Shown here: piece after piece, positions 2,673 through 63,848 of the stretch
Position numbering within the stretch: position 1 is the stretch's first letter
Layout: every line of letters begins with the position of its first letter
NCBI GenBank assembly: GCA_034096865.1
Contig: JAWQFJ010012246.1
Coordinates: forward strand, 10,001 to 74,000
DNA length: 64,000 bases
Source of the DNA: Theodoxus fluviatilis
Taxonomy: Eukaryota > Mollusca > Gastropoda > Cycloneritida > Neritidae
Direction: 5' to 3'
Notes under the pieces: model-generated
Told to the model about the DNA's origin: nothing
Seen by the model: the letters and a program-made list of their open reading frames with translations, nothing else
Databases searched by the model: none
Made by a program: the position numbers and the translations under genes

Positions 2673-2846
2673 AGAGAGGAAATGCTTGTATAACTTTGAA
2701 AAACATTAGCATTTGAATGAGACTTTTGTTTACATAATTTGTTATCTGTACTTTGCTTTGGTGGAAAAAATAGAAATTATGACTGTAACTCTAGGCACCT
2801 GTAGGTAGCCAACATTTCCCATCTTCGTCTTTTGACAGGGAGACTT

Positions 2847-5800
2847 CACGTGTTGTGGCAGACTTCATGTATTGCAGCAGACTTCATGTGTTGGTTGTGG
2901 CAGACTTCACGTGTTGCGGCAGACTTCATGTGTTGTGGCAGACTTCATGTGTTGCAGCAGACTTCATGTGTTGTGGCAGACTTCATGTGTTGCAGCAGAC
3001 TTCATGTGTTGTGGCAGACTTCATGTGTTGGTTGTGGCAGACTTCATGTGTTGGTTGTGGCAGACTTCATGTGTTGGTTATGGCAGACTTCATGTGTTGG
3101 TTGCGGCAGACTTCATGTGTTGCAGCAGACTTCACGTGTTGGTTGCGGCAGACTTCATGTGTTGTGGCAGACTTCATGTGTTGCGGCAGACTTCATGTGT
3201 TGCGGCAGACTTCATGTGTTGTGGCAGACTTCATGTGTTGTGGCAGACTTCATGTGTTGTGGCAGACTTCATGTGTTGCGGCAGACTTCATGTGTTGTGG
3301 CAGACTTCATGTGTTGGTTGCGGCAGACTTCATGTGTTGGTTGCAGCAGACTTCATGTGTTGTGGCAGACTTCATGTGTTGTGGCAGAATTCATGTGTTG
3401 GTTGCGGCAGACTTCATGTGTTGTGGCAGACTTCATGTGTTGTGGCAGACTTCATGTGTTGTGGCAGACTTCATGTGTTGTGGCAGATTTCATGTGTTGC
3501 GGCAGACTTCATGTGTTGGTTGCGGCAGACTTCATGTGTTGTGGCAGACTTCATGTGTTGCGGCAGACTTCATGTGTTGCGGCAGACTTCATGTGTTGTG
3601 GCAGACTTCATGTGTTGGTTGCGGCAGACTTCATGTGTTGCGGCAGACTTCATGTGTTGCGGCAGACTTCATGTGTTGCGGCAGACTTCATGTGTTGGTT
3701 GTGGCAGACTTCATGTGTTGGTTGTGGCAGACTTCATGTGTTGGTTGCGGCAGAATTCATGTGTTGGTTGCGGCAGACTTCATGTGTTGGCTATGGCAGA
3801 CTTCATGTGTTGGTTGCGGCAGAATTCATGTGTTGGTTGCGGCAGACTTCATGTGTTGTGGCAGACTTCATGTGTTGTGGCAGACTTCACGTGTTGCGGC
3901 AGACTTCATGTGTTGTGGCAGACTTCATGTGTTGTGGCAGACTTCATGTGTTGGTTGCGGCAGAATTCATGTGTTGTGACAGACTTCATGTGTTGTGGCA
4001 GACTTCATGTGTTGTGGCAGACTTCATGTGTTGGTTGCGGCAGACTTCATGTGTTGGTTGCGGCAGACTTCATGTGTTGGTTGCAGCAGACTTCATGTGT
4101 TGTGGCAGACTTCATGTGTTGTGGCAGAATTCATGTGTTGGTTGCGGCAGACTTCATGTGTTGCGGCAGACTTCATGTGTTGTGGCAGACTTCATGTGTT
4201 GGTTATGGCAGACTTCATGTGTTGGTTGCGGCAGACTTCATGTGTTGCGGCAGACTTCATGTGTTGCGGCAGACTTCATGTGTTGTGGCAGACTTCATGT
4301 GTTGGTTATGGCAGACTTCATGTGTTGGTTGCGGCAGACTTCATGTGTTGTGGCAGACTTCATGTGTTGCGGCAGACTTCATGTGTTGGGGCAGACTTCA
4401 TGTGGCAGACTTCATGTGTTGTGGCAGACTTCATGTGTTGTGGCAGACTTCATGTGTTGTGGCAGACTTCATGTGTTGCGGCAGACTTCATGTGTTGCGA
4501 CAGACTTCATGTGTTGGTTGTGGCAGACTTCATGTGTTGGTTGCGGCAGACTTCATGTGTTGGTTGCGGCAGACTTCATGTGTTGTGGCAGACTTCATGT
4601 GTTGGTTGTGGCAGACTTCATGTGTTGTGGCAGACTTCATGTGTTGCGGCAGACTTCATGTGTTGGTTGTGGCAGACTTCATGTGTTGGTTGTGGCAGAC
4701 TTCATGTGTTGGTTGCGGCAGACTTCATGTGTTGGTTGTGGCAGACTTCATGTGTTGTGGCAGACTTCATGTGTTGTGGCAGACTTCATGTGTTGCGGCA
4801 GACTTCATGTGTTGGTTGCAGCAGACTTCATGTGTTGTGGCAGACTTCATGTGTTGTGGCAGACTTCATGTGTTGTGGCAGACTTCATGTGTTGGTTGTG
4901 GCAGACTTCATGTGTTGTGGCAGACTTCATGTGTTGTGGCAGACTTCATGTGTTGTGGCAGACTTCATGTGTTGGTTGTGGCAGACTTCATGTGTTGTGG
5001 CAGACTTCATGTGTTGCGGCAGACTTCATGTGTTGTGGCAGACTTCATGTGTTGCGGCAGACTTCATGTGTTGGTTGCAGCAGACTTCATGTGTTGTGGC
5101 AGACTTCATGTGTTGTGGCAGACTTCATGTGTTGTGGCAGACTTCATGTGTTGGTTGTGGCAGACTTCATGTGTTGTGGCAGACTTCATGTGTTGCGGCA
5201 GACTTCATGTGTTGTGGCAGACTTCATGTGTTGTGGCAGACTTCATGTGTTGCAGCAGACTTCATGTGTTGCAGCAGACTTCATGTGTTGCGGCAGACTT
5301 CATGTGTTGGTTGCGGCAGACTTCATGTGTTGTGGCAGACTTCATGTGTTGCAGCAGACTTCATGTGTTGTGGCAGACTTCATGTGTTGGTTGCAGCAGA
5401 CTTCATGTGTTGCGGCAGACTTCATGTGTTGCGGCAGACTTCATGTGTTGGTTGCAGCAGACTTCATGTGTTGGTTGTGGCAGACTTCATGTGTTGGTTG
5501 CGGCAGACTTCATGTGTTGCGGCAGACTTCATGTGTTGCGGCAGACTTCATGTGTTGTGGCAGACTTCATGTGTTGCAGCAGACTTCATGTGTTGGTTGT
5601 GGCAGACTTCATGTGTTGCGGCAGACTTCATGTGTTGTGGCAGACTTCATGTGTTGTGGCAGACTTCATGTGTTGGTTGCGGCAGACTTCATGTGTTGGT
5701 TGCGGCAGACTTCATGTGTTGTGGCAGACTTCATGTGTTGCGGCAGACTTCATGTGTTGTGGCAGACTTCATGTGTTGTGGCAGACTTCATGTGTTGTGG

Positions 5801-6969
5801 CAGACTTCATGTGTTGCGGCAGACTTCATGTGTTGTGGCAGACTTCATGTGTTGCAGCAGACTTCATGTGTTGGGGCAGACTTCATGTGTTGCAGCAGAC
5901 TTCATGTGTTGGTTGTGGCAGACTTCATGTGTTGCGGCAGACTTCATGTGTTGTGGCAGACTTCATGTGTTGGTTGTGGCAGACTTCATGTGTTGTGGCA
6001 GACTTCATGTGTTGCGGCAGACTTCATGTGTTGGTTGTGGCAGACTTCATGTGTTGCGGCAGACTTCATGTGTTGCGGCAGACTTCATGTGTTGGTTGCG
6101 GCAGACTTCATGTGTTGTGGCAGACTTCATGTGTTGCGGCAGACTTCATGTGTTGGTTGTGGCAGACTTCATGTGTTGGTTGTGGCAGACTTCATGTGTT
6201 GCGGCAGACTTCATGTGTTGTGGCAGACTTCATGTGTTGTGGCAGACTTCATGTGTTGCGGCAGACTTCATGTGTTGCGGCAGACTTCATGTGTTGCGGC
6301 AGACTTCATGTGTTGGTTGTGGCAGACTTCATGTGTTGTGGCAGACTTCATGTGTTGTGGCAGACTTCATGTGTTGGTTGCGGCAGACTTCATGTGTTGT
6401 GGCAGACTTCATGTGTTGGTTGCAGCAGACTTCATGTGTTGCGGCAGACTTCATGTGTTGCAGCAGACTTCATGTGTTGGTTGTGGCAGACTTCATGTGT
6501 TGTGGCAGACTTCATGTGTTGTGGCAGACTTCATGTGTTGGTTGCGGCAGACTTCATGTGTTGTGGCAGACTTCATGTGTTGGTTGCAGCAGACTTCATG
6601 TGTTGGTTGCGGCAGACTTCATGTGTTGCGGCAGACTTCATGTGTTGCGGCAGACTTCATGTGTTGGTTGCGGCAGACTTCATGTGTTGCGGCAGACTTC
6701 ATGTGTTGTGGCAGACTTCATGTGTTGTGGCAGACTTCATGTGTTGCGGCAGACTTCATGTGTGTTGCGGCAGACTTCATGTGTTGGTTGCGGCAGACTT
6801 CATGTGTTGCGGCAGACTTCATGTGTTGGTTGCGGCAGACTTCATGTGTTGCGGCAGACTTCATGTGTTGCGGCAGACTTCATGTGTTGCGGCAGACTTC
6901 ATGTGTTGTGGCAGACTTCATGTGTTGGTTGTGGCAGACTTCATGTGTTGCGGCAGACTTCATGTGTTG
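2847..6969. repeat. 4.1-kb minisatellite, mixed 19/23-bp units
   Basis: About 200 head-to-tail units. The short unit is 19 bp (CAGACTTCATGTGTTGTGG) and the long unit carries four more bases (TTGG), making 23 bp. The base before GGC varies among TGT, TGC and TGCA forms, and rarer units have CAGAATTC, TTCACG or TTATGG. A shortened unit (CAGACTTCATGTGG) lies near 4392-4410. All three plus-strand frames stay open for more than 1000 codons because no unit or junction contains a stop; this follows from unit composition and is not evidence of a gene. Confidence 0.98.
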
Positions 6970-7634
6970 TCACTTACTAAATGTCTTGTCATTGTTCTGT
7001 GAATTTCACTAAGTGACTTCATTGTGTGTCTTCACTAAGTCCGGCAACAGCATTCGGGTTTGAATCTCTAATATGTTTTTGCAGGCACGTTGGTGTGCAT
7101 ACGGGTGCAAGAGCTAGAAATGAAGCCAACATTGATAAACAACCCATTTTGTGAGATGCAGTTTCTTTCTGAACAATTCATAAGTTTTTGGTTGTGGTTG
7201 TGTGCTCCTTAGAATAGTGTGTGTGTGTGCGAGTTTGAGTGTGTGTGAGTGTGTGTTTGTGTGCGTGTGTGTAAAATCTCTCCCCTTACCTCATCATCCT
7301 ATTAGACTCTCAGAGCTTTTCTGATTTGCTACAGAAAATTGGCAACCTGTGATAGAATTTACATTTTATCTTTTTATGACAATGCAGTGCCAAATGCATG
7401 AGTAATGATTTTGTTTGAATGTCCTTTTGGTCCCAGAATTGAATTTAAAAATCAGACTTGTTATTAATTGGTTGTGATGCTTATTGTATATGAAAAATAC
7501 CATACCATGATACATTTTCAAAGCAAAAGCACCATGTTAGAATGGAGTTTAAGGGTTGACAACCTGATGGTGTAGAGGATCACCTCTTTTGGGGATTAGT
7601 AGGAGCATGAGCATGTTAATAAAAATGCCAATTT
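6970..7634. other. Intergenic, nothing recognised
   Basis: Unique-looking sequence with a short interrupted GT run at about 7215-7272. Confidence 0.5.
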
Positions 7635-12169: not shown

Positions 12170-13438
12170 TCATTTTCAACAGCAAGGCACTTTAGTCGAT
12201 CACAGCAACTGTCTCACTACATTCCAAAGCTTTAAGTGCACTGGTAGTTAGAGTCAGTCACAGCAACTTTCACACTTCAACCCCAAGCTTTTAGTTCAAT
12301 GGCAATGTGAGTAAATCACAGCAACTTTCACACTACAACCCAAAGCTTTAGTTCAATGGCAACGTGAGTAAATCACAGCAACTTTCACACTTCAACCCAA
12401 AGCTTTAGTTCAATGGCAACGTGAGTCAGTCACAGCAACTTTCACACTACATCCCAAAGCTTTAGTTCAATGGCAACATGAGTAAATCACAGCAACTTTC
12501 ACACTACAACCCAAAGCTTTTAGTTCAATGGCAATGTGAGTAAATCACAGCAACTTTCACACTACAACCCAAAGCTTTAGTTCAATGGCAACGTGAGTCA
12601 GTCACAGCAACTTTCACACTTCAACCCAAAGCTTTTAGTTCAATGGCAACGTGAGTAAATCACAGCAACTTTCACACTACAACCCAAAGCTTTAGTTCAA
12701 TGGCAACGTGAGTCAGTCACAGCAACTTTCACACTACAACCCAAAGCTTTAGTTCAATGGCAACGTGAGTAAATCACAGCAACTTTCACACTACAACCCA
12801 AAGCTTTAGTTCAATGGCAACGTGAGTAAATCACAGCAACTTTCACACTACAAAACAAAGCTTTAGTTCAATAGCAACGTCAGTAAATCACAGCAACTTT
12901 CACACTACAACCCAAAGCTTTTACTGGTCAACTTGAGTCAATCACAGCAACTTTCACACAACACCCCAAAGTTTTTACTGGCCAACTTGAGTCAATCACA
13001 GCAACCTTCACACTACAGTCCAAAGCTTTTAGTTCAATGGCAACTTGAGTCAGTCACAGCAACTTTCACACAACACCCCAAAGTTTTTACTGGCCAACTT
13101 GAGTCAGTCACAGCAGTTTCACACTACAACCCAAAGCTTTTAGTTCAATGGCAACTTGAGTCAGTCATGGCAACTTTCACACTACAGTCCAAAGCTTTTA
13201 GTTCAATGGCAACTTGAGTCAGTCACAGCAACTTTCACACAACACCCCAAAGTTTTTACTGGCCAACTTGAGTCAGTCACAGCAGTTTCACACTACAACC
13301 CAAAGCTTTTAGTTTAATGGCAACTTGAGTCAGTCATGGCAACTTTTACACTACAGTCCAAAGTTTTTAGTTCAATGGCAACTAGAGTCAGTCATGGCAA
13401 CTTTCACACAACAGCCCTACACTTTTAGAACACTGGCA
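12170..13438. repeat. About 59-bp minisatellite abutting the WDR53 stop codon
   Basis: About 22 units containing CACAGCAACTTTCACAC, CAACCCAAAGCTTTTAG and TTCAATGGCAAC.TGAGT. Units nearest WDR53 are more mixed (TTTTTACTGGCCAACTTGAG variants), while those at 12300-12850 are nearly uniform. The last unit runs through the WDR53 stop codon into its final codons, so the array lies in, or directly starts, the WDR53 3' UTR. Confidence 0.93.
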
Positions 13439-14816
13439 ACTTGAGAATGGTCAGCACTGAGGACTGGTCAGCCACAGCCAGGCAAGTTTCTCCATTTTCT
13501 CTGAATGGCACAAGCCAGTTGATCTTGGAGGAGTGTTTGAAGGACAACAGCAGACGGGCCTGAGGCTGTTCATCTGAGCAAGATGATGTTGAAGCGGTTG
13601 AAGCTGCCCCCTGCCCTTGCTCCTGAACCGACTCACCAAGGCTTTGAGCAAGACTGCTTGAGGTACCAGCTCCATCTGCTGCTTGAGGAACATCATCTAA
13701 TGCCCTCCCACCCCCACCAACTTCCACCCTGGAGCTCTCTTCCTCTGTCACAGATGCAGACCCATGCATGCAAGCGCCTCTGTTCTGGGAGGGTTCACCA
13801 TGGAGGAATTCTTCACTCAGAGAACCAGACTTGACAGCAGCATCAGTCTTTCCTGTGCCTAGTGCATTTGTACCATTGTGGTGTGCTGTTGTCTTGGCAT
13901 TAGCAGATCCTGTTTTCTTTACTTCCATGCCAGGTTGCTTGAAGGTACTGTTGCATCCTTCCACGCCCTCTCCTTTCCCTCCTTCTTGACTCAATCTGCT
14001 CAAGTTCCATAGCCGGATGAGGGCATCATTGCCCCCCGTCACAAGGAGCCTCTCAGTCACAAATCGAACCTGAGCCACACCTTCTTCATGTGCCTTCATG
14101 ACAAAGAGAAGCTGCAAGTCCCTCTGTGAGCTGTTGAACACAGCCACATGTCCTGACTGAAGTCCACAGACTAGATGTTGGCCCTCTGGGGACATGTCCA
14201 AGTGGTATACTAGGGGTGGGTTTACCATGTACCCTGAAGCATCCTGCTGTTTGGCAAGGATGTCGACCATGTTGTAGCTGGCTTGAGCTCGATGCTGGGG
14301 GTATATCCAGTGTACCAGCTTCTGGTCCATTCCTCCACTAAACAAGTCTGTGGTGCAAGATGGATGGAAATAGATCGAGGAACAGATGTTGGCATGCTTT
14401 TTCCGGAGAGTTTTATAAAGTTTTTTCTTCTTCACATCAATGATCTTTACTTCTCCTGAATCATCGCAAGCTGCAAGATATCTTTCAGACGAATCCAAGG
14501 CAATCTGGTTCACCTCATCACTGTTGCAGGCAAAGGTATGCACAGGAGTTTGCAAGTTGCTGCAGCTGAATCGAAAAACTTTGGACCCAACGGCTGCAAA
14601 CAGGGTTCCTGGCTCTTTCCTAGTAAAACAAATGGACGTACAGTCGCAGTCAGACTCAGGGTCTACCAGAGTTTTCTGCAGCACGTGTCCGGATGCGTCC
14701 CACAAACACAACTCCCCGCTCTCGCCACCTGTGGCCACAAAGCCACTGATAGCATCATGATCAGCACAGAGAATGGATTCACTGTGACCACCTCTGAAGG
14801 TGTGCTTGCACTCCAT
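13425..14816 (-). CDS. WDR53: WD repeat-containing protein 53
   Basis: A 463-residue protein in one uninterrupted exon. An in-frame TAA sits directly before the ATG, fixing the start. Residues 1-273 form the WD-repeat propeller: GGHSESILC..GGESGELCLWD (9-41), a degenerate blade (60-90), SDEVNQIALDSSERYLAACD..VKIID (99-127), KKHANICSSIYFHP..GGMDQKLVHWIY (139-172), SPEGQHLVCG..VAVF (209-227) and HEEGVAQVRF..TGGNDALIRLWNLS (243-273). Residues 274-420 are a Ser/Gly/Glu-rich linker without structure signals. Residues 422-463 (SFKHSSKINWLVPF..LAVADQSSVLTI) match the closing segment of WDR53. Human WDR53 is about 358 residues; the excess lies in the linker. WDR53 is known as a DDB1-binding candidate substrate receptor of CUL4 ubiquitin ligase. 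It is divergent with AMMECR1. Confidence 0.93.
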   Translation of the reverse strand: MECKHTFRGGHSESILCADHDAISGFVATGGESGELCLWDASGHVLQKTLVDPESDCDCTSICFTRKEPGTLFAAVGSKVFRFSCSNLQTPVHTFACNSDEVNQIALDSSERYLAACDDSGEVKIIDVKKKKLYKTLRKKHANICSSIYFHPSCTTDLFSGGMDQKLVHWIYPQHRAQASYNMVDILAKQQDASGYMVNPPLVYHLDMSPEGQHLVCGLQSGHVAVFNSSQRDLQLLFVMKAHEEGVAQVRFVTERLLVTGGNDALIRLWNLSRLSQEGGKGEGVEGCNSTFKQPGMEVKKTGSANAKTTAHHNGTNALGTGKTDAAVKSGSLSEEFLHGEPSQNRGACMHGSASVTEEESSRVEVGGGGRALDDVPQAADGAGTSSSLAQSLGESVQEQGQGAASTASTSSCSDEQPQARLLLSFKHSSKINWLVPFRENGETCLAVADQSSVLTILKLPVF

Positions 14817-15519: not shown

Positions 15520-36388
<20,869 letters not shown>

Positions 36389-46635: not shown

Positions 46636-46711
46636 ATGGCAGTCGGTGGCAAATTCTTTGTGACTTTCGGGCTTGTTGCCCTCGCGCACGCAGCGTATTC
46701 TGCTGCTCAAC
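46636..46711 (+). CDS. MMGT1: EMC5/MMGT1 exon 1
   Basis: ATG at 46636-46638 in context AAGCAATGG. 25 codons plus one base (C of His), donor GTATGT. Confidence 0.93.
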
Positions 46712-47334
46712 GTATGTATCTCAGTTCATCCATTGTTCTCATTCGGAAACAGTTGGACAATTATTTTTCACAAAATGCAGGACGGATTATTCAATTTAAT
46801 GAGTGCTGTTACCGCTGTCGCTGCAACTGTTCCCGTCATTGCCAGGGTCAATCGACTCGTTAGTCCATCGGTGCGAGTTATACAGACCGTACAGTGTATA
46901 CTTGTGCGCTTATGGTGCAGTTTGTGTACCTTGCTTTTAAAACAAAGTGAAACGTTTGTGGTGAATATTAACTTTTGCGACTGATAACTGGCTGATTCTC
47001 TCTGAGTCATCTATTCACTCCTCACCAAACAATCTCCCCATACTCTTTCTCATATTCACTCACTTGTTCATCTTTTTCACTCTCGTATTCGCCATTTATG
47101 AATTTTCACAGATCTATGACCTTGTTTTATGTCTTTGTGTTGCAGACAGAACATACCTGAGGCTTACTGAACAGGAGTTTTCATGTTTGCCTATTGATGT
47201 AAGTTTTGTGACCCCCTTTGGCTGTCAAACTATCTGTTCATCCATCTGTTCATCCGTCTGTTCTTTCTCTTGTGTGAATGGATATCCTCACACATTCATG
47301 CCTGCAGGCAGGTATTCATACATGGATGTACACA

Positions 47335-47420
<86 letters not shown>

Positions 47421-49085
47421 CACACACACCACACATGCATGCATGCATATGCACGTGCGTGCGCACACAGTTCAGTTCAGTTCAGTCTCTTAACCCTGAG
47501 ATGGGTTGTTGAGGCACCACTGATGACTTTCAGACAATCTTCCTCCATCGATCTCTATCCTCTGTGGCTCGCTGTGAGTCAGCAAAGGTCAAGCCTGTCC
47601 ACTCTGCGCACACACACATACACAAAGATACACACTTATAGTTTGTTCATGGAGTACAACAAGGCAAACCATTCTTTCAAAACTACATCCAGATGTTTGT
47701 AACATAACGAGTTACTCTGTGTTTAATGCACCTTATATATGTATCTTGTTGAACATTTTTTGGTCATAAATTAAGGGATCTCCATGTATTTTTGGGGAGA
47801 TATTTCTTTGCCATAGAGCTGACACCTGTTTCCATGTGTCATATAATTACATACTTGTTGACTGATTGTGTTTCCTTGTTGACAGATATTGTTTCCTTGT
47901 TGACAGATATTGTTTCCTTGTTGACAGATATTGTTTCCTTGTTGACAGATATTGTTTCCTTGTTGACAGATAATGCTTCAGTGTATTCTTGGACTCTGCC
48001 TCGTGTGCTTTGGTGTTGTCCAAGTGGCAGGTGGCTTTAGGGAAATCCGAGCAGCATCGGAACTAGAAAACAGGTAAGTACAGTTCCGCAGCCCCAGCCC
48101 TGATTTTCTGGCATCTTAACTGTTAGTACCGAGAAACAGTACTGAACCAATCAATTGACAAGTTGTTGACACTCTGTTTAGCTCGGAGGGCTAGTACTTG
48201 ACCAATTGACTGAATCCACGAGGTGTAGATGGCTAGCAGGTTGCGGTCTACTCTGTTCCAGATCAAATGTTGGTTTCTTGGCTGCCATGCTCAAACCTTC
48301 TTAGCTTCAATCTCAGATATTTTGACATCTGCTGGGTAAAAATAGTTTTTCTCTTCAGCAGATGAGCACTAACTGGGAAGGATTGTCATAACTGTCATGT
48401 CTAGTTGCTTATACTTTCTTCAGTAGTGTGGTTATTTCTTAGAAATGTATTCCATGTATGTGAGGAAGAAAGACTTTTTCTTGGAAGAGATAGATGTTGA
48501 AAACAAATGTATTGTATCTCATTGAGAATGTCATTCCTAGTACTGTAATAGAAACTGGTTTTTGTGTGATCGCTTGATGTACCACTGCAGACTGACAGAA
48601 GATACAAAATGTAATAGAATTTGTTCTTTTGTTTAATTAATCTTGTAAAGTGGTCAGAGATTCTTGGGTAGTGTCATTAAACCTGTTGCATTCCTTTTGA
48701 TAGATTTTTTTCCCTTCTAAATGTTGAAGTTTATTTTGAGCTTTGCTTTACAGAAATGGTTTATTGAACATTGTTTACTGTTTTTTCACTGGCTTGCATA
48801 TTTTGATGAGGAATAGTTGGTTGGGCAGCCAGTTATAGAATGTCCTCCCACCTCTCAAGAACACACTGGCGTAAAACTCTAATCACAACCTTCTCTTTTC
48901 CCCCAAAATGCAAAGAAATTCCCTAGGTGGTAATTTAGGGTTACTTTGTCACACTATTCCCACCTAAGGTCATCTTGATTTCTATGGTTCCTTGCAGAAC
49001 CTGGGATATGTTGAACAACAGGCAGTCTTTCAACATCTTCAACCATCGAGGCAAAGCCCTGTACCGGTATGAGGAAGAGGACTGA
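46636..49085 (+). CDS. MMGT1: ER membrane protein complex subunit 5 / membrane magnesium transporter 1 (whole gene, four coding exons)
   Basis: Exons 46636-46711, 47146-47198, 47970-48073 and 48998-49085 join in frame to 106 residues with GT-AG introns. Residues 1-25 (MAVGGKFFVTFGLVALAHAA YSAAQ) form the first membrane helix with the family signature ALAHAAxSAAQH. HRTYLRLTEQE and LPID match the conserved cytosolic loop. Residues 44-66 (IMLQCILGLCLVCFGVVQVA GGF) form the second helix, and FREIRAASELENRTWDMLNN and FNIFNHRGKALYR match the conserved C-terminal region. The vertebrate protein is about 131 residues; only the variable tail is shorter here. EMC5 is a core subunit of the ER membrane complex that inserts tail-anchored and multipass proteins; Mg2+ transport has also been proposed. 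Confidence 0.95.
47146..47198 (+). CDS. MMGT1: EMC5/MMGT1 exon 2
   Basis: Acceptor TGTTGCAG at 47138-47145. AC completes His, then RTYLRLTEQEFSCLPID, ending in phase 0 before GTAAGT. Confidence 0.94.
47332..47418. repeat. CA then GA microsatellite in EMC5 intron 2
   Basis: About 14 CA units followed by about 24 GA units. Confidence 0.95.
47467..47608 (-). mobile_element. LINE 3'-end fragment, same family as 45.1-45.7 kb
   Basis: Read on the minus strand it matches the last about 130 bp of the 45.1-kb LINE (GTCAGCAAAGGTCAAGCCTG seen on plus; then CCTCTGTGGCTCGCTGTGAG, ATCTCAGGGTTAAGAGACTG on minus) and ends in the same ACTGA repeats. Strongly 5'-truncated; lies in EMC5 intron 2. Confidence 0.9.
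47858..47981 (+). repeat. 21-bp repeat carrying the EMC5 exon 3 splice acceptor
   Basis: Units start at about 47858 (degenerate, ACTG instead of ACAG), 47879, 47900, 47921, 47942 and 47963. The full unit is TTGACAGATATTGTTTCCTT plus G, so each brings its own pyrimidine-rich tract and CAG. The last unit runs into exon 3 (CAG at 47967-47969). Confidence 0.97.
47970..48073 (+). CDS. MMGT1: EMC5/MMGT1 exon 3
   Basis: Uses the 3'-most of five ACAG acceptors. Encodes IMLQCILGLCLVCFGVVQVA and GGFREIRAASELEN plus AG of Arg; donor GTAAGT. Using any upstream acceptor would add 21 bases per unit with an in-frame TGA. Confidence 0.94.
48998..49085 (+). CDS. MMGT1: EMC5/MMGT1 exon 4 with stop
   Basis: Acceptor TCCTTGCAG. 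A completes Arg, then TWDMLNNRQSFNIFNHRGKA, LYRYEEED and TGA at 49083-49085. Confidence 0.95.
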
Positions 49086-55924: not shown

Positions 55925-56666
55925 CTGATAGCGTCAAGGAATCTTGTCCACAGAGCAAACTGATAGAAATGCACAACTTCCCATTTTCCATGCCAAGGTC
56001 TATGGCAAAGCAATACATACATGATGATTTAAAAACAAAATTCACTGCCACTTCAGTTAGGATAAATTTTATACATGTAGATTGCCTTTGCTAGCATATC
56101 ATAGTCCTGGGAAACCCCTCAACTGTCTGTGTGTCTGTCTGTCTGTGTGTCTGTCTTTCTGTGTGTCTGTCTGTGTGTGTGTGTCTGTCTGTCTGTGTGT
56201 CTGTCTGTGTGTGTGTGTCTGCCTGCCTGCCTGCCTGCCTGTCTGTGTGTCTGTCTGTCTGTGTGTCTGTCTGTCAGTCTGTCTGTGTGTCTGTCTGTCT
56301 GTCTGTCTGTCTGCCTGCCTGGATGCCGGCCTGCCTGTCTGTCCATCCGTCCATCGGTCTGCCTGTGTGTCTGTCTGTCTTTGTGTCTGTCTGTGTGTCT
56401 GTCTGTCTGTGTGTCTGTCTGTCTGTGTGTCTGTCTGTGTGTGTGTGTGTCTGTCTGTCTGCCTGCCTGCCCGCCCGCCTGTCTGCCTGCCCGTCCGTCC
56501 GTTCGTCTGTCTGTCTGTGTGTCTGTCTGTCCGTCTGTGTGTCTGTCTGTCTGTCTGTGTGTCTGTCTGTCTGTCTGTCTGCCTGCCCGCCCGCCTGTCT
56601 GTCTGTCTATGTGTCTGTCTGTGTGTCTGTGTGTCTGTCTGTCTGTCTGTTGTCTGTCTGTATGTG

Positions 56667-56711
<45 letters not shown>

Positions 56712-59700
56712 GGTTTTATCCCTAACTCACTGATGGTGTAGGAACAACTATGAGGACTGGCCGACTATTCAATAACCCCAGTTTGAGCTACACGAAGCAC
56801 ATATACTACTGTTACAATCAGAGGATAGCGTTACCTAATGTTCTGCTCAGGGCATCATTCCTCTTCAGTGAATTATACAATCCATTTGACCTAAATTTCA
56901 GTCCTACGGGTAGGAAAGGGTTAAAATGCAGATTCAGGAGTCTAGTGTAAAACCCTCAACTTGCCTGCATCCCAGTTCAAACATCCAAGGACCATGCATG
57001 CCTACGTACCATTAAAATGCAAGTGAAATGTAATTACTACACCCACAAAACAATGTTACCTCAGGCAACTTTACACTCATAATTTCATATAAGGACACAC
57101 AATCAAAAGCAAGCCTACACAAGATTACCTGGGGACAAGCTAGAGTGGGCAAAGCGAAAGGATACGATAATATTCCATGGTCCAAGTCGTACCCAGGTGG
57201 GAATGAAGCCCTTGTACAGCGCCATGAAACCCTCAGAGCGTACAGTCTGGAAACAGGAGAGAGCAAACATACAGCTACAACAATCATGGTAGAATAGCAC
57301 ACATCATTAGCAACATCTGGCACTATCTGATAAAATCATACAATTCAAGTTGTGTCATTGTCCATATAACACAGATAGAAACATGGTGTTATTACATTTG
57401 TTAGAGTAATAAAGTATGATACAATTGCATGCTATCTTATTTTATGGCCTATGATTAGTGTGTGGACTCCATAACTTGAGCGATGTGATTGAGTTAATTA
57501 ATGTTGAACTTCTTGTACGTTTCTGTTTTTGTATGTATGTATTATGTTTGTGCCACCGACAAAACGAATGTCCTTGTACAATGAGGACAATAAAGTATCT
57601 TGTATCTTGTAATTCAACCAATGCATAGGAGAAAAATAGTGTTTTCTGCAGGCAAACACACACACAATCACATGCACACACACACACAATCACCTGCACA
57701 AACACACACACACATACACCATTTCCTATTGAACAGTAATTCAACGAATTATTTGATTAAAAATACTTGAGATCATGATATTTGACAACAGAGGTATTTG
57801 GGCTGAAAGAGGTCCAGCATGGATAGATGGATTTAAAGAGATGAGCAGAATTATTTGCAATGAACAGCTGTGTCCAAAAGGACAGCAGGAGCTAAACAGG
57901 CAAAACAAAGAGAAAAAAAGAGAGATAAAACCAGTTTCTGTTTTTAATATACTGTGTATTAATTTATGATAAGTCAATGCTTCAAAAGTATGCAAGTCTT
58001 CAGTTATGATTACCTACAGAAATAACTGTACCCATAGAAGCAAAAGTTTATTTAAATAATGATTATCAAAAGTGGTATCAATATGCAAAGGATACACCAC
58101 CTTCATGAAAAGCATCAGACTGGAAACAATTTATTTCCAAGAAAAATACCAACATTACAGCATCAAACAAGTGCTAAGAAACACAGATGGCCAGACAACT
58201 GCACTAACGATAGGTGGATGTCCTACAATAGGAAATCCAATCACAACTGCAAAAACTCAGTCTAGCGAGACAAAAACTCTGTAGAGCTTTCACAATACGT
58301 GTACTACAGGAACATAGGTCTCCACACAGCAATGTTGGAAAGACGTCCTGTGTAATTTCACATGACACGCGTACCTGGACGAAGCAGTCAGCAGCAGATG
58401 TGTAGATGGCTGGGGACACACCTCCTACCCCTACCGACGCCTTGAGCTTCTGCTGGTTCATCAGGCGTGTCTGTAACGACCAAGACCAGACCCCGTCTGA
58501 GAGCAAGTCCCCATATCATACAGTGGCCTGAGGCAGACAGGCAAGTGATGGTGCAAGAGCTTTGTCACAAGTCTCTCTCTTCCCAAAATGAAACACCCAA
58601 CCCAATGTCATCTTTGTCAAAAGTCGGGTCTTGTCGGTCCTTCTGTTGTGACTGCGTTTAAAACAAGAATCATCCACACATTTTTATTTACCATGCAGCT
58701 AGCCGAGTTATCTGAGGTACAGAGTTTTGCACACTAAATCACAATAATCTACAATGTTTGGTATTAATGATTGGGCATTTTAAAATCTAACACCTAAAAA
58801 TAAAATAAAAAGCACAAGCATAAATTCAAACACAAGTTTATATTCCCTAGCAAATAGAAATATTGTTGTTCTACTATGTCATAGGTAGAATCAGTCCATC
58901 ACCATTCCCAGAAACCTTTTGTAGAATGTCAGTCTCACTGTCGGTCAAAGTGATTACATAACTAATACCAAGAGAACAGCCAGCTCCAAGAGAAGAAAGA
59001 GAATTCACTTTTAATTGTCATTATTTAGATCCTACTTAATTGGGTGATCTAACATAGTATTACTTAAAATCAACATTTTTTTTTAAAAAGGTTCCATCAT
59101 TCTGTTTGTGTATGCCACATTTCCCCACACTCCTATCATAGCATTTACTGCTTTACTTTTATTTCCCAATCATGCATACTCAACTCTTTTTTCCACGACA
59201 TAAATTATTTCATGCAGAGGTTACATAAGGCTTGTTCAGGAGTACGAAGTGATGTATGAGTGCTTCATGTTGGCAAATGAGCACTGTTTGCCTCTCGTCA
59301 ACACCTGCCCCCTGTGGGTTCGGGGTAAGAATTGACTCACCGCGTCTCCCTACGCGATTCGTAAGAGGCGAATAACTAGGGACGCCGTGACGGGACTATG
59401 TTTACTCTAAACTGTTCTAGCGACTTTCGTGCTTAATGGCCTTACATAGCCTACAAAGGCTGATAGGCCGTAAAACTCCATCCATCCATCCATCCATCGT
59501 GAACACCTACAAATTTAGTGAAGCTCTTCACTTGTTAAAGGGAGGTAAATCTTCTGCGCTGCATGTCATGTTGCTAGAAGCTAGAGAAAGTGTTTTCTGT
59601 GCCACAGACATCGTTTATGCACGTTTACATGTATTCTGCATGAATAAAGTCCACTACTGTGTCATCCTTACCTGCCATTACTCGCGCATACAGAGCGCTT

Positions 59701-62700: not shown

Positions 62701-63848
62701 CTTGAGGCTGTCAGTGAATTTCACTGGCAAAGACAACACCTGCCACATCCTGCTGCCGGTTACTCTGCTCACATGAAGTGCGTGGACTTGGTGTCGCCCA
62801 TGTGGCCCGAGTGGATGAGGTGCTTCTTGCACAGGTCGTAGGCTGGTAGCTCCACTCCGGCAACCACCGCGGCCCTCTGGGCTGTCGGGCCCACTCCCTG
62901 CAATGGACCATCCGCATCAGACCATATCCCAGCCGGCAGTTCCGTCTTTGCTGGTATTGCTGCCCTTAAGTGTGTCAGTTGTGGCATGAGCTCTTCAAAC
63001 TCATGGGTCAAAAAGTAGCAGTTGAGGTATATGTTGTTTACACACCACATGGCTACATATCCATCCTTGAAAATGGAACTGCATGTATTCTCTGTTGGTT
63101 TAACATGAAAATTTATCTTTCTATCTGTGCATGACAGAGGATAGGTTCTCCCCCCATGCGCACATTGCTTACTGCCTGGAAATTTGCATTCACACTCCAT
63201 GCACTTCGTGCTTTTCAACAACTACACCAAATGACTTAATGAGTGGATGAGCTTTACGGCCAATAAGCCTTTGCAGGCTATGTAAGGCCTGGAATCATGG
63301 AATCGGTAAAACAATCTAGAGTATGCATATGTTAAGTCACGATGTCCCTATTGGTTTGCCTCCAATGGATCATGTAGGGAGACACGGTGGGTCTATTCTC
63401 ATCCCCAGCACACAGGGGTGGGGATGAGAATACAGGTTGGAATGAGTGTATCATGATGGCAGTCTGCCAGGCATACAGCTGGGAATGTGTCCATCATGAT
63501 GGCAGTCTGCCAGGCATACAGCTTGGAATGTGTCCATCATGATGGCAGTCTGCCAGGCATACAGCTTGGAATGTGTCCATCATGATGGCAGTCTGCCAGG
63601 CATACAGCTTGGAATGGGTCCATCATGATGGCAGTCTGCCAGGCATACAGCTTGGAATGGGTCTATCATGATGGCAGTCTGCCAGGCATACAGCTTGGAA
63701 TGGGTCCATCATGATGGCAGTCTGCCGAGCCAGGGAAGTCACAACTCACCCGCCACAGGCCATTGACTCCCTCCTCCCTGTAGATGTGCAGGAAAGACTG
63801 CAGCATGCTTCGGCCCTTCTCCGACTTCCCTCTCGCCTGCATCCGCAC
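55886..63848 (-). CDS. SLC25A30: Mitochondrial carrier, SLC25A14/SLC25A30 (UCP5/KMCP1) group, partial
   Basis: Six minus-strand exons, 63750-63848, 62773-62897, 62024-62084, 58375-58470, 57166-57246 and 55886-55924, join in frame to 166 residues ending in TGA. All introns are GT-AG. They cover repeat modules 2 and 3: VRMQARG follows the (missing) module 2 Px[DE]xxK signature, [20 protein letters not shown] and [17 protein letters not shown] are module 2 helices, NPIDVVKTR is the module 3 signature, and [34 protein letters not shown] is the C-terminal helix. The LGPWNIIFF ending separates this group from UCP1-3 and UCP4. The vertebrate proteins are about 290-325 residues, so about 125 or more N-terminal residues lie right of the window. 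Inner-membrane anion transporter; KMCP1/UCP5 are reported to carry inorganic anions and dicarboxylates. Invertebrates often have one gene for both vertebrate paralogues, so the exact symbol is uncertain. Confidence 0.92.
56126..56712. repeat. CTGT/CTGC tetranucleotide tract
   Basis: About 580 bp of CTGT units mixed with GTGT, CTGC and CCGC/CCGT variants. It lies in the last intron of the carrier gene. All three plus frames remain open; artefact. Confidence 0.97.
57166..57246 (-). CDS. SLC25A30: Carrier exon, module 3 second half
   Basis: Acceptor TTTCCAG on minus; 27 codons [20 protein letters not shown] and LGPWNII; donor GTATCC, a weak but valid GT donor. Phase 0 on both sides. Confidence 0.93.
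57655..57720. repeat. Interrupted CA microsatellite
   Basis: CA repeats with AATCAC interruptions. Confidence 0.9.
58375..58470 (-). CDS. SLC25A30: Carrier exon, start of module 3 loop
   Basis: Acceptor GTTACAG on minus; 32 codons [20 protein letters not shown] and [12 protein letters not shown]; donor GTACGC. It joins NPIDVVK to TR to complete the P-x-D-x-x-K-x-R signature. Confidence 0.93.
58471..59295 (-). other. Carrier intron, nothing recognised
   Basis: AT-rich sequence without recognisable exon or repeat. Confidence 0.6.
59296..59510 (+). mobile_element. CATC-tailed SINE-like element, copy 7
   Basis: Starts near CCCCCTGTGGGTTCGGGGTA at about 59308, keeps CGCGTCTCCCTACGCGATTC and AGAGGCGAATAACTAGGGAC, and ends in CATC units at about 59497. 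Imperfect flanking duplication around CGT(C/G)AACACCT. Inserted in the carrier intron, antisense to the gene. Confidence 0.88.
59511..62023 (-). other. Carrier intron, no exon recognised
   Basis: Holds a poly-G run at 59965-59979 and unique-looking sequence. The open frames at 60444-60962 show no family features. Confidence 0.5.
62024..62084 (-). CDS. SLC25A30: Carrier exon, module 3 first helix
   Basis: C completes Ile, then [20 protein letters not shown]; donor GTGAGA. The acceptor on minus is GATAG. Confidence 0.93.
62268..62524 (-). mobile_element. CATC-tailed SINE-like element, copy 8, with 13-bp target-site duplication
   Basis: Body 62281-62511, flanked by perfect TTTTCACAACAGA at 62268-62280 and 62512-62524. 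The 5' end carries a tandem duplication of about 38 bp (GGGAGACGCGGTGGGTCAAT twice, at about 62430 and 62468). The tail is decayed to TTGGATTGG. Confidence 0.92.
62773..62897 (-). CDS. SLC25A30: Carrier exon, module 2 second half
   Basis: Acceptor CCTGCAG on minus. 41 codons [41 protein letters not shown] plus AT of Ile; donor GTGAGC. Confidence 0.94.
63237..63417 (-). mobile_element. CATC-tailed SINE-like element, copy 9 (diverged)
   Basis: TACGGCCAATAAGCCTTTGC, AGGCTATGTAAGGCC, GTAGGGAGACACGGTGGGTC and CACAGGGG on plus. In the carrier intron, directly left of the 43-bp repeat. Confidence 0.8.
63439..63727 (+). repeat. 43-bp repeat, about 6.7 copies
   Basis: Units start at 63439, 63482, 63525, 63568, 63611, 63654 and 63697; each contains CATCATGATGGCAGTCTGCC and AGGCATACAGCT. 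It ends about 17 bp from the splice donor of the neighbouring carrier exon. Confidence 0.96.
63750..63848 (-). CDS. SLC25A30: Carrier exon, module 2 first half (first exon inside the window)
   Basis: Acceptor TCTGTGCAG on minus; 33 codons [20 protein letters not shown] and [13 protein letters not shown]; donor GTGAGT. Phase 0 on both sides. Confidence 0.94.

What the first reader, a model, noticed from the sequence alone, without database searches (positions are those of the whole stretch)
47858..47981. Splice acceptor of EMC5 exon 3 is tandemly amplified
The 21-bp unit holds a complete pyrimidine tract plus CAG and is repeated five times, the last copy being the real acceptor. Each upstream acceptor would insert 21 bases containing an in-frame TGA, so the cell must choose the 3'-most of five near-identical sites or make a truncated protein. 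A sixth, degenerate unit has ACTG instead of ACAG. This is a natural test of acceptor choice and may tune EMC5 dosage through nonsense-mediated decay.
Basis: partly seen in the sequence, partly recalled or inferred. Interest (0 to 1): 0.75.

Follow-up and report, generated by a model that had tools for sequence, protein, structure and literature searches.

The report
Five-copy splice acceptor array in EMC5
In a snail-like genome a 21-base tandem repeat has swallowed a splice site of the EMC5 gene, leaving five near-identical sites of which only the last gives a working protein: most likely a chance minisatellite, but a clean natural test of how cells pick a splice site.

Summary
At 47854-47979 a 21-bp unit repeats six times; five units end in CAG (47885, 47906, 47927, 47948, 47969). 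The gene is EMC5/MMGT1. Its four exons join into an intact 106-aa protein only with the acceptor at 47969; each upstream acceptor adds 21-84 nt with an in-frame TGA. 0 of 106 homologues carry an insertion there.

New points. (1) The first 10 nt of exon 3 belong to the repeat (8 of 10 match). (2) Each unit holds a branch-point-like TTGAC 24 nt before the next AG and 3 nt before its own, so the array reads as a ladder of branch-point/AG pairs; the in-frame TGA lies inside that motif. (3) A second splice-site array lies in the window: the donor of AMMECR1 exon 4 is copied four times in a 74-bp unit, and only the first copy keeps the reading frame.

Best reading: a passive minisatellite that captured an exon edge, exon definition favouring the exon-proximal copy, upstream use giving NMD-prone waste. 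Dosage tuning is untested. Splice-site minisatellites are known (human F7, IFI6); an acceptor version with a branch-point motif in the unit looks like a new variant. No RNA, population or own-genome data were reached.

The parts
46636..46711 (+). EMC5 exon 1, coding part
   Evidence: spliced translation
47146..47198 (+). EMC5 exon 2
47199..47969 (+). EMC5 intron 2, 771 nt, phase 0
   Evidence: from the exon ends
47854..47979 (+). 21-bp tandem array, six copies, running 10 nt into exon 3
   Evidence: TRF; copies read
47865..47885 (+). acceptor unit 1 (two mismatches); using it adds 84 nt with stops
47886..47906 (+). acceptor unit 2; using it adds 63 nt with stops
47907..47927 (+). acceptor unit 3; using it adds 42 nt with stops
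47928..47948 (+). acceptor unit 4; using it adds 21 nt with a stop
47949..47969 (+). acceptor unit 5, the only one that gives full-length EMC5
   Evidence: 0 of 106 homologues have an insertion between D43 and I44
47942..47946 (+). branch-point-like TTGAC (A at 47945), 24 nt before the coding AG; equivalent motifs with A at 47861, 47882, 47903 and 47924 each lie 24 nt before AGs 1-4
   Evidence: motif scan YTNAY; consensus recalled
47970..48073 (+). EMC5 exon 3, 104 nt
48998..49085 (+). EMC5 exon 4, coding part with stop
33664..33970 (+). companion array: 74-bp unit x4.1 holding the last 24 nt of AMMECR1 exon 4 (33597-33687) plus its donor; donors at 33688, 33762, 33836 and 33910
   Evidence: AMMECR1 by Pfam 6.7e-46

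Best explanation
A minisatellite of period 21 arose across the intron 2/exon 3 edge of EMC5. Its unit contains the first 10 nt of the exon, a pyrimidine tract, a branch-point-like TTGAC and the CAG acceptor, and it spread by slippage or unequal exchange into the intron (inferred). Because each TTGAC lies 3 nt from its own AG, which is too close to use, and 24 nt from the next AG, the array is a ladder in which choice of branch point n sets AG n+1 (inferred from spacing). Full-length EMC5 needs the last rung: branch A 47945 with AG 47969. With flanking introns of 771 and 924 nt I expect exon definition, which favours sites close across the exon, to select mostly the last rung (inferred). Upstream rungs give mRNAs with a stop after five added codons, a 48-aa product, and these should be removed by NMD (inferred). 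The array is probably tolerated rather than selected.
For: Array and junction consequences. Exon start is part of the repeat, 8 of 10 matches; the unit's second codon TTG encodes Leu, the residue in 52 of 106 homologues, whereas the window's own Met is in 2 of 106, as if the units preserved an older exon start. Branch-like motifs exactly 24 nt before each AG. AGs closer than about 12-15 nt to a branch point can be bypassed and otherwise the first AG downstream is taken (passages of PMC1431707). Sites >=20 nt apart are typically chosen with separate branch points in the first step, and with long flanking introns pairs close across the exon are favoured (abstract and passages of PMC9225289). The same kind of array occurs at an AMMECR1 donor in the same window, where the coding copy is again the exon-proximal one. 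11 high-identity arrays of period >=15 in 64 kb show that such arrays form readily here.
Against: No RNA data: use of any junction is unknown. In PMC9225289 alternative acceptors >=20 nt apart show an overall preference for the UPSTREAM acceptor; long flanking introns reduce it significantly but the passages I saw do not say they reverse it. The original branch point, if it is the 5' copy (A 47861 or 47865), points by the first-AG rule to the non-coding AG 47885. The five acceptors have the same pyrimidine count, 12 of 18, so sequence strength does not favour the last, and RNA folding shows no special structure to hide the others (z -0.24, 89 of 200 shuffles fold as well). The enrichment of arrays on splice sites is not firm: rotations reach 2 arrays in 2248 of 64000 cases for high-identity arrays of period >=15, 3232 of 64000 for period >=10, but 29921 of 64000 when degenerate arrays are included. 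The 8-of-10 exon match is a single short comparison.
Confidence: 0.6

Rival explanations
1. Dosage tuner: unit number sets the share of EMC5 transcripts that splice to poison acceptors and are lost to NMD, so array length is a selected or at least effective rheostat of EMC5.
For: Every upstream acceptor yields an early stop 107-170 nt before the last junction; the stop TGA lies inside the branch-point-like motif, so it cannot be lost without touching that motif.
Against: No expression, population or cross-species evidence; such arrays are common in the window outside genes too; two arrays in two unrelated genes argue for a general mutational process.
Confidence: 0.12
2. Silent passenger: the spliceosome always uses a fixed branch point near the exon, the upstream copies are never used, and the array has no effect on EMC5 at all.
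For: The last rung is complete in itself, branch A 47945 and AG 47969 at 24 nt. Human F7 has an array of 37-bp repeats at a donor of which only one copy is normally used (passage of PMC6627357).
Against: The upstream rungs are identical in sequence for 63 nt (units 2-4 against unit 5), so complete silence needs a strong positional rule.
Confidence: 0.2
3. Assembly or copy-number error: the true genome has fewer units.
For: The internal units are identical, which is where collapse or expansion errors occur; raw reads were not available.
Against: The whole array is 126 bp, short enough for single reads; the edge copies carry their own differences.
Confidence: 0.05
4. The locus is a non-functional or second EMC5 copy, so the array is free of constraint.
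For: The genome could not be searched for another copy (genome search did not complete).
Confidence: 0.03

Closest known systems
Human coagulation factor VII intron 7 (37-bp repeats at the donor)
   Same: A minisatellite straddling an exon edge repeats a splice site in highly similar copies, and the coding copy is the exon-proximal one (passages of PMC6627357; the primary paper, Borensztajn 2006, is not held).
   Different: F7 repeats a donor, and the coding copy is also the first transcribed. EMC5 repeats an acceptor, and the coding copy is the last transcribed. The AMMECR1 array of this window is the closer match to F7.
Human IFI6 (G1P3, 6-16) minisatellite with multiple splice donors
   Same: Repeat units serve as alternative splice sites (passage and reference list of PMC4526556; Turri 1995 itself not held).
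   Different: Donors, not acceptors; downstream units there are used and give different isoforms.
Human UBC tandem array of dual-specific splice sites
   Same: Splice sites repeated with a tandem unit and used in a ladder (abstract and passages of PMC10809524).
   Different: UBC uses AGGT sites that act as donor and acceptor at codon-unit borders. The EMC5 unit has AG|AT and intron 2 (771 nt) is not a multiple of 21.
NAGNAG and other closely spaced tandem acceptors
   Same: Competing acceptors for one exon.
   Different: NAGNAG sites lie 3 nt apart and share one branch point; here the spacing is 21 nt and each AG has its own branch-point-like motif.

Membership tests
EMC5 / MMGT1 gene | MMgT domain, homology to EMC subunit 5 and an intact reading frame | tested here: met
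   Pfam MMgT 2.4e-13, 51.1 bits against cut-off 23, profile 2-57 of 118; PDB EMC subunit 5 1.3e-33; 106 homologues; frame intact
Splice-site minisatellite (F7/IFI6 kind) | High-identity tandem array of period 10-100 that includes a coding splice site | tested here: met
Splice-site minisatellite (F7/IFI6 kind) | Repeat unit holds exon as well as intron sequence | tested here: met
   10 nt of exon 3, 8 of 10 matching; in AMMECR1 24 nt of exon 4, identical in four copies
Splice-site minisatellite (F7/IFI6 kind) | Copy number varies between individuals | not testable with these tools
   no population data
Splice-site minisatellite (F7/IFI6 kind) | Known pattern of site use in RNA | not testable with these tools
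   no RNA-seq
NAGNAG tandem acceptor | Two AGs 3 nt apart | tested here: not met
   spacing 21 nt
Dual-specific splice-site array (UBC kind) | AGGT at the unit border and intron length a multiple of the unit | tested here: not met
   AG|AT in every unit; 771 is not a multiple of 21 (from coordinates)
Poison-acceptor / NMD switch | Alternative site introduces an early stop upstream of a later junction | tested here: met
Poison-acceptor / NMD switch | Poison isoform is made and its level is regulated | not testable with these tools
   no RNA data

The most novel reading that the evidence does not exclude
The array is a length-variable rheostat: each unit adds one more branch-point/AG rung that competes for U2 snRNP, so unit number sets the productive fraction of EMC5 splicing (1 of 5 if the rungs are equal) and varies EMC5 dosage between animals. 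Acceptor and donor minisatellites of this kind would then be a general source of heritable expression variation in minisatellite-rich molluscan genomes.
Probability: 0.1. Interest if true: 0.8.

Novelty: new variant of a known kind. Interest (0 to 1): 0.5.

Why it matters
Two accounts have been offered for which copy of a repeated splice site is used: oriented 5'-to-3' scanning, and proximity across the exon. At donor arrays such as F7 both predict the same copy. At an acceptor array they predict opposite ends. EMC5 gives five acceptors with the same 12-of-18 pyrimidine count, four of them identical over 21 nt, in an essential-looking gene with a clean readout in 21-nt steps, and AMMECR1 gives a matched donor array in the same genome. 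One RNA-seq data set would therefore separate the two models without engineering. It would also show how much splicing noise a genome tolerates when minisatellites invade exon edges.

Tried and rejected
Structure that hides upstream AGs: RNA fold of 47810-48073 is no better than shuffles (z -0.24, 89 of 200). Rejected.

Stronger pyrimidine tract at the coding acceptor: 12 of 18 in all five units. Rejected.

A significant excess of arrays on splice sites: 2 arrays hold one of 16 junctions; rotations reach this in 2248 of 64000 (period >=15, identity >=90%), 3232 of 64000 (period >=10, identity >=90%) and 29921 of 64000 (all arrays of period >=10). An earlier version with a hand-typed interval list gave 264 of 9143 and 3819 of 9143. 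Sixteen junctions of three genes on one contig are too few, and they are linked; no claim is made.

Dual-specific sites and NAGNAG: tested and not met (see membership). Known RNA families and tRNAs: none found in the window. A PDB match for the 30-aa AMMECR1 exon alone: none; Pfam on that exon alone gave 17 bits, below its cut-off of 25. The joined 194-aa piece gave 156 bits.

Literature: ten searches were run. Among the papers listed I noticed none describing a tandem acceptor minisatellite, judged from titles and starts of abstracts; most lists were cut to 15-20 papers and subscription journals are largely missing, so this is weak evidence of absence.

Full report
What is there. Tandem Repeats Finder reports a 21-bp array at 47854-47979, six copies, 95% matches. 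Read so that units end at the acceptor, four units (47886-47969) are identical, the first acceptor unit (47865-47885) has two mismatches and the unit before it ends ACTG instead of ACAG. With up to three mismatches the core occurs only in these five units and at one place elsewhere that lacks the AG, and 0 of 100 shuffles reach six matches.

Which gene. Exons 46636-46711, 47146-47198, 47970-48073 and 48998-49085 join into an open frame of 106 aa. It matches Pfam MMgT at 2.4e-13, solved EMC subunit 5 at 1.3e-33 and 106 database proteins, the best a Littorina saxatilis protein at 74% identity over 91% of the query. A gastropod origin is likely; the species was not established. No homologue of 106 has residues inserted between D43 and I44, the exon 2/3 junction (one of the 106 has a gap from I44 on). 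So 47969 is the coding acceptor.

What upstream acceptors would do. Each adds 21, 42, 63 or 84 nt beginning ATA TTG TTT CCT TGT TGA, so the product stops after ILFPC, 48 aa in all. The first stop lies 107, 128, 149 or 170 nt before the exon 3/4 junction, so NMD is expected by the recalled 50-55 nt rule. This was not tested. A further CAG at 47979-47981 inside exon 3 would delete IMLQ in frame; Q47 is present in 105 of 106 homologues with one gap, so that site is unlikely to be productive.

Anatomy of the unit. The first 10 nt of exon 3 match the unit at 8 of 10 positions. The unit reads ATA TTG where the exon reads ATA ATG. Leu, encoded by TTG, is found at that residue in 52 of 106 homologues and Met in 2 of 106. 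This fits units copied from an older exon start, but the comparison is short. Each unit also contains TTGAC, which fits the recalled animal branch-point consensus yUnAy, with its A 3 nt before its own AG and 24 nt before the next. The in-frame stop TGA lies inside this motif. Since an AG within about 12-15 nt of a branch point can be bypassed and otherwise the first AG is taken (passages of PMC1431707), the array can be read as five branch-point/AG rungs. Only the last gives EMC5.

Which rung should win. The five acceptors have the same pyrimidine count (12 of 18) and no distinctive RNA structure. The flanking introns are 771 and 924 nt. PMC9225289 (abstract and passages) reports that sites closest across the exon are favoured when flanking introns are long, that acceptors 20 nt or more apart are chosen in the first step with separate branch points, and also that such acceptors overall prefer the upstream site, a preference that is reduced with long introns. 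It further describes Reed and Maniatis 1986 as finding the upstream of two competing acceptors chosen. The expectation for EMC5 is therefore exon-proximal use, but not a safe one. These data are from mammals.

A second array. At 33664-33970 a 74-bp unit is repeated 4.1 times at 99%. Four copies are identical and each holds the last 24 nt of an exon plus AAG|GTAAGT. The exon is exon 4 of the five found here of AMMECR1, whose exons lie in order at 15634-36387 and whose 194-aa joined piece matches Pfam AMMECR1 at 6.7e-46; exon 1 was read only from 15634. Donors 2-4 all lead into a stop; donor 1 keeps the frame. Its flanking introns are 1767 and 2528 nt. As in EMC5 the coding copy is exon-proximal. 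In human F7, where 37-bp repeats hold donors, only the most upstream is normally used, attributed to oriented scanning (passage of PMC6627357). Exon proximity and 5'-to-3' scanning agree at donor arrays and disagree at acceptor arrays. That makes EMC5 the informative case.

Is the overlap of arrays and splice sites special? Eleven merged arrays of period >=15 and identity >=90% cover 2.8% of the window; two hold one of the 16 junctions that I placed, and a third begins 23 nt from the donor of a mitochondrial-carrier exon. Rotating the junctions reaches two arrays in 2248 of 64000 positions for this set, 3232 of 64000 for period >=10, and 29921 of 64000 with degenerate arrays included. This is suggestive at most. 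The simple account is a minisatellite-rich genome in which some arrays fall on exon edges.

Limits. No RNA data and no raw reads exist here, and the own genome could not be searched (11 unanswered requests). The mechanism is inferred from sequence and from mammalian rules.

Noticed in passing
33664-33970, + strand: Donor of AMMECR1 exon 4 repeated four times in a 74-bp array; only the first copy keeps the frame.
   Followed up: yes
63430-63726, - strand: A 43-bp array (6.9 copies, 96%) begins 23 nt after the donor of a mitochondrial-carrier exon (Pfam Mito_carr 3.9e-06).
   Followed up: partly
window 15634-49085: AMMECR1 and EMC5 are neighbours here.
   Followed up: partly
17865-18629, - strand: Reverse-transcriptase frame (Pfam RVT_1 3e-37) in the first AMMECR1 intron, beside further frames without Pfam matches.
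   Followed up: partly
13425-14816, - strand: WD40-repeat protein frame of 463 aa (Pfam WD40 1.2e-21), with a 57-bp array at 12200-13445 overlapping its 3' end.
   Followed up: no
2841-6970; 28176-29640; 31913-33213; 56123-56712: Long degenerate arrays of period 19, about 13, 12 and 4; the first leaves long stop-free frames (up to 1391 aa) that are most likely not genes.
   Followed up: no
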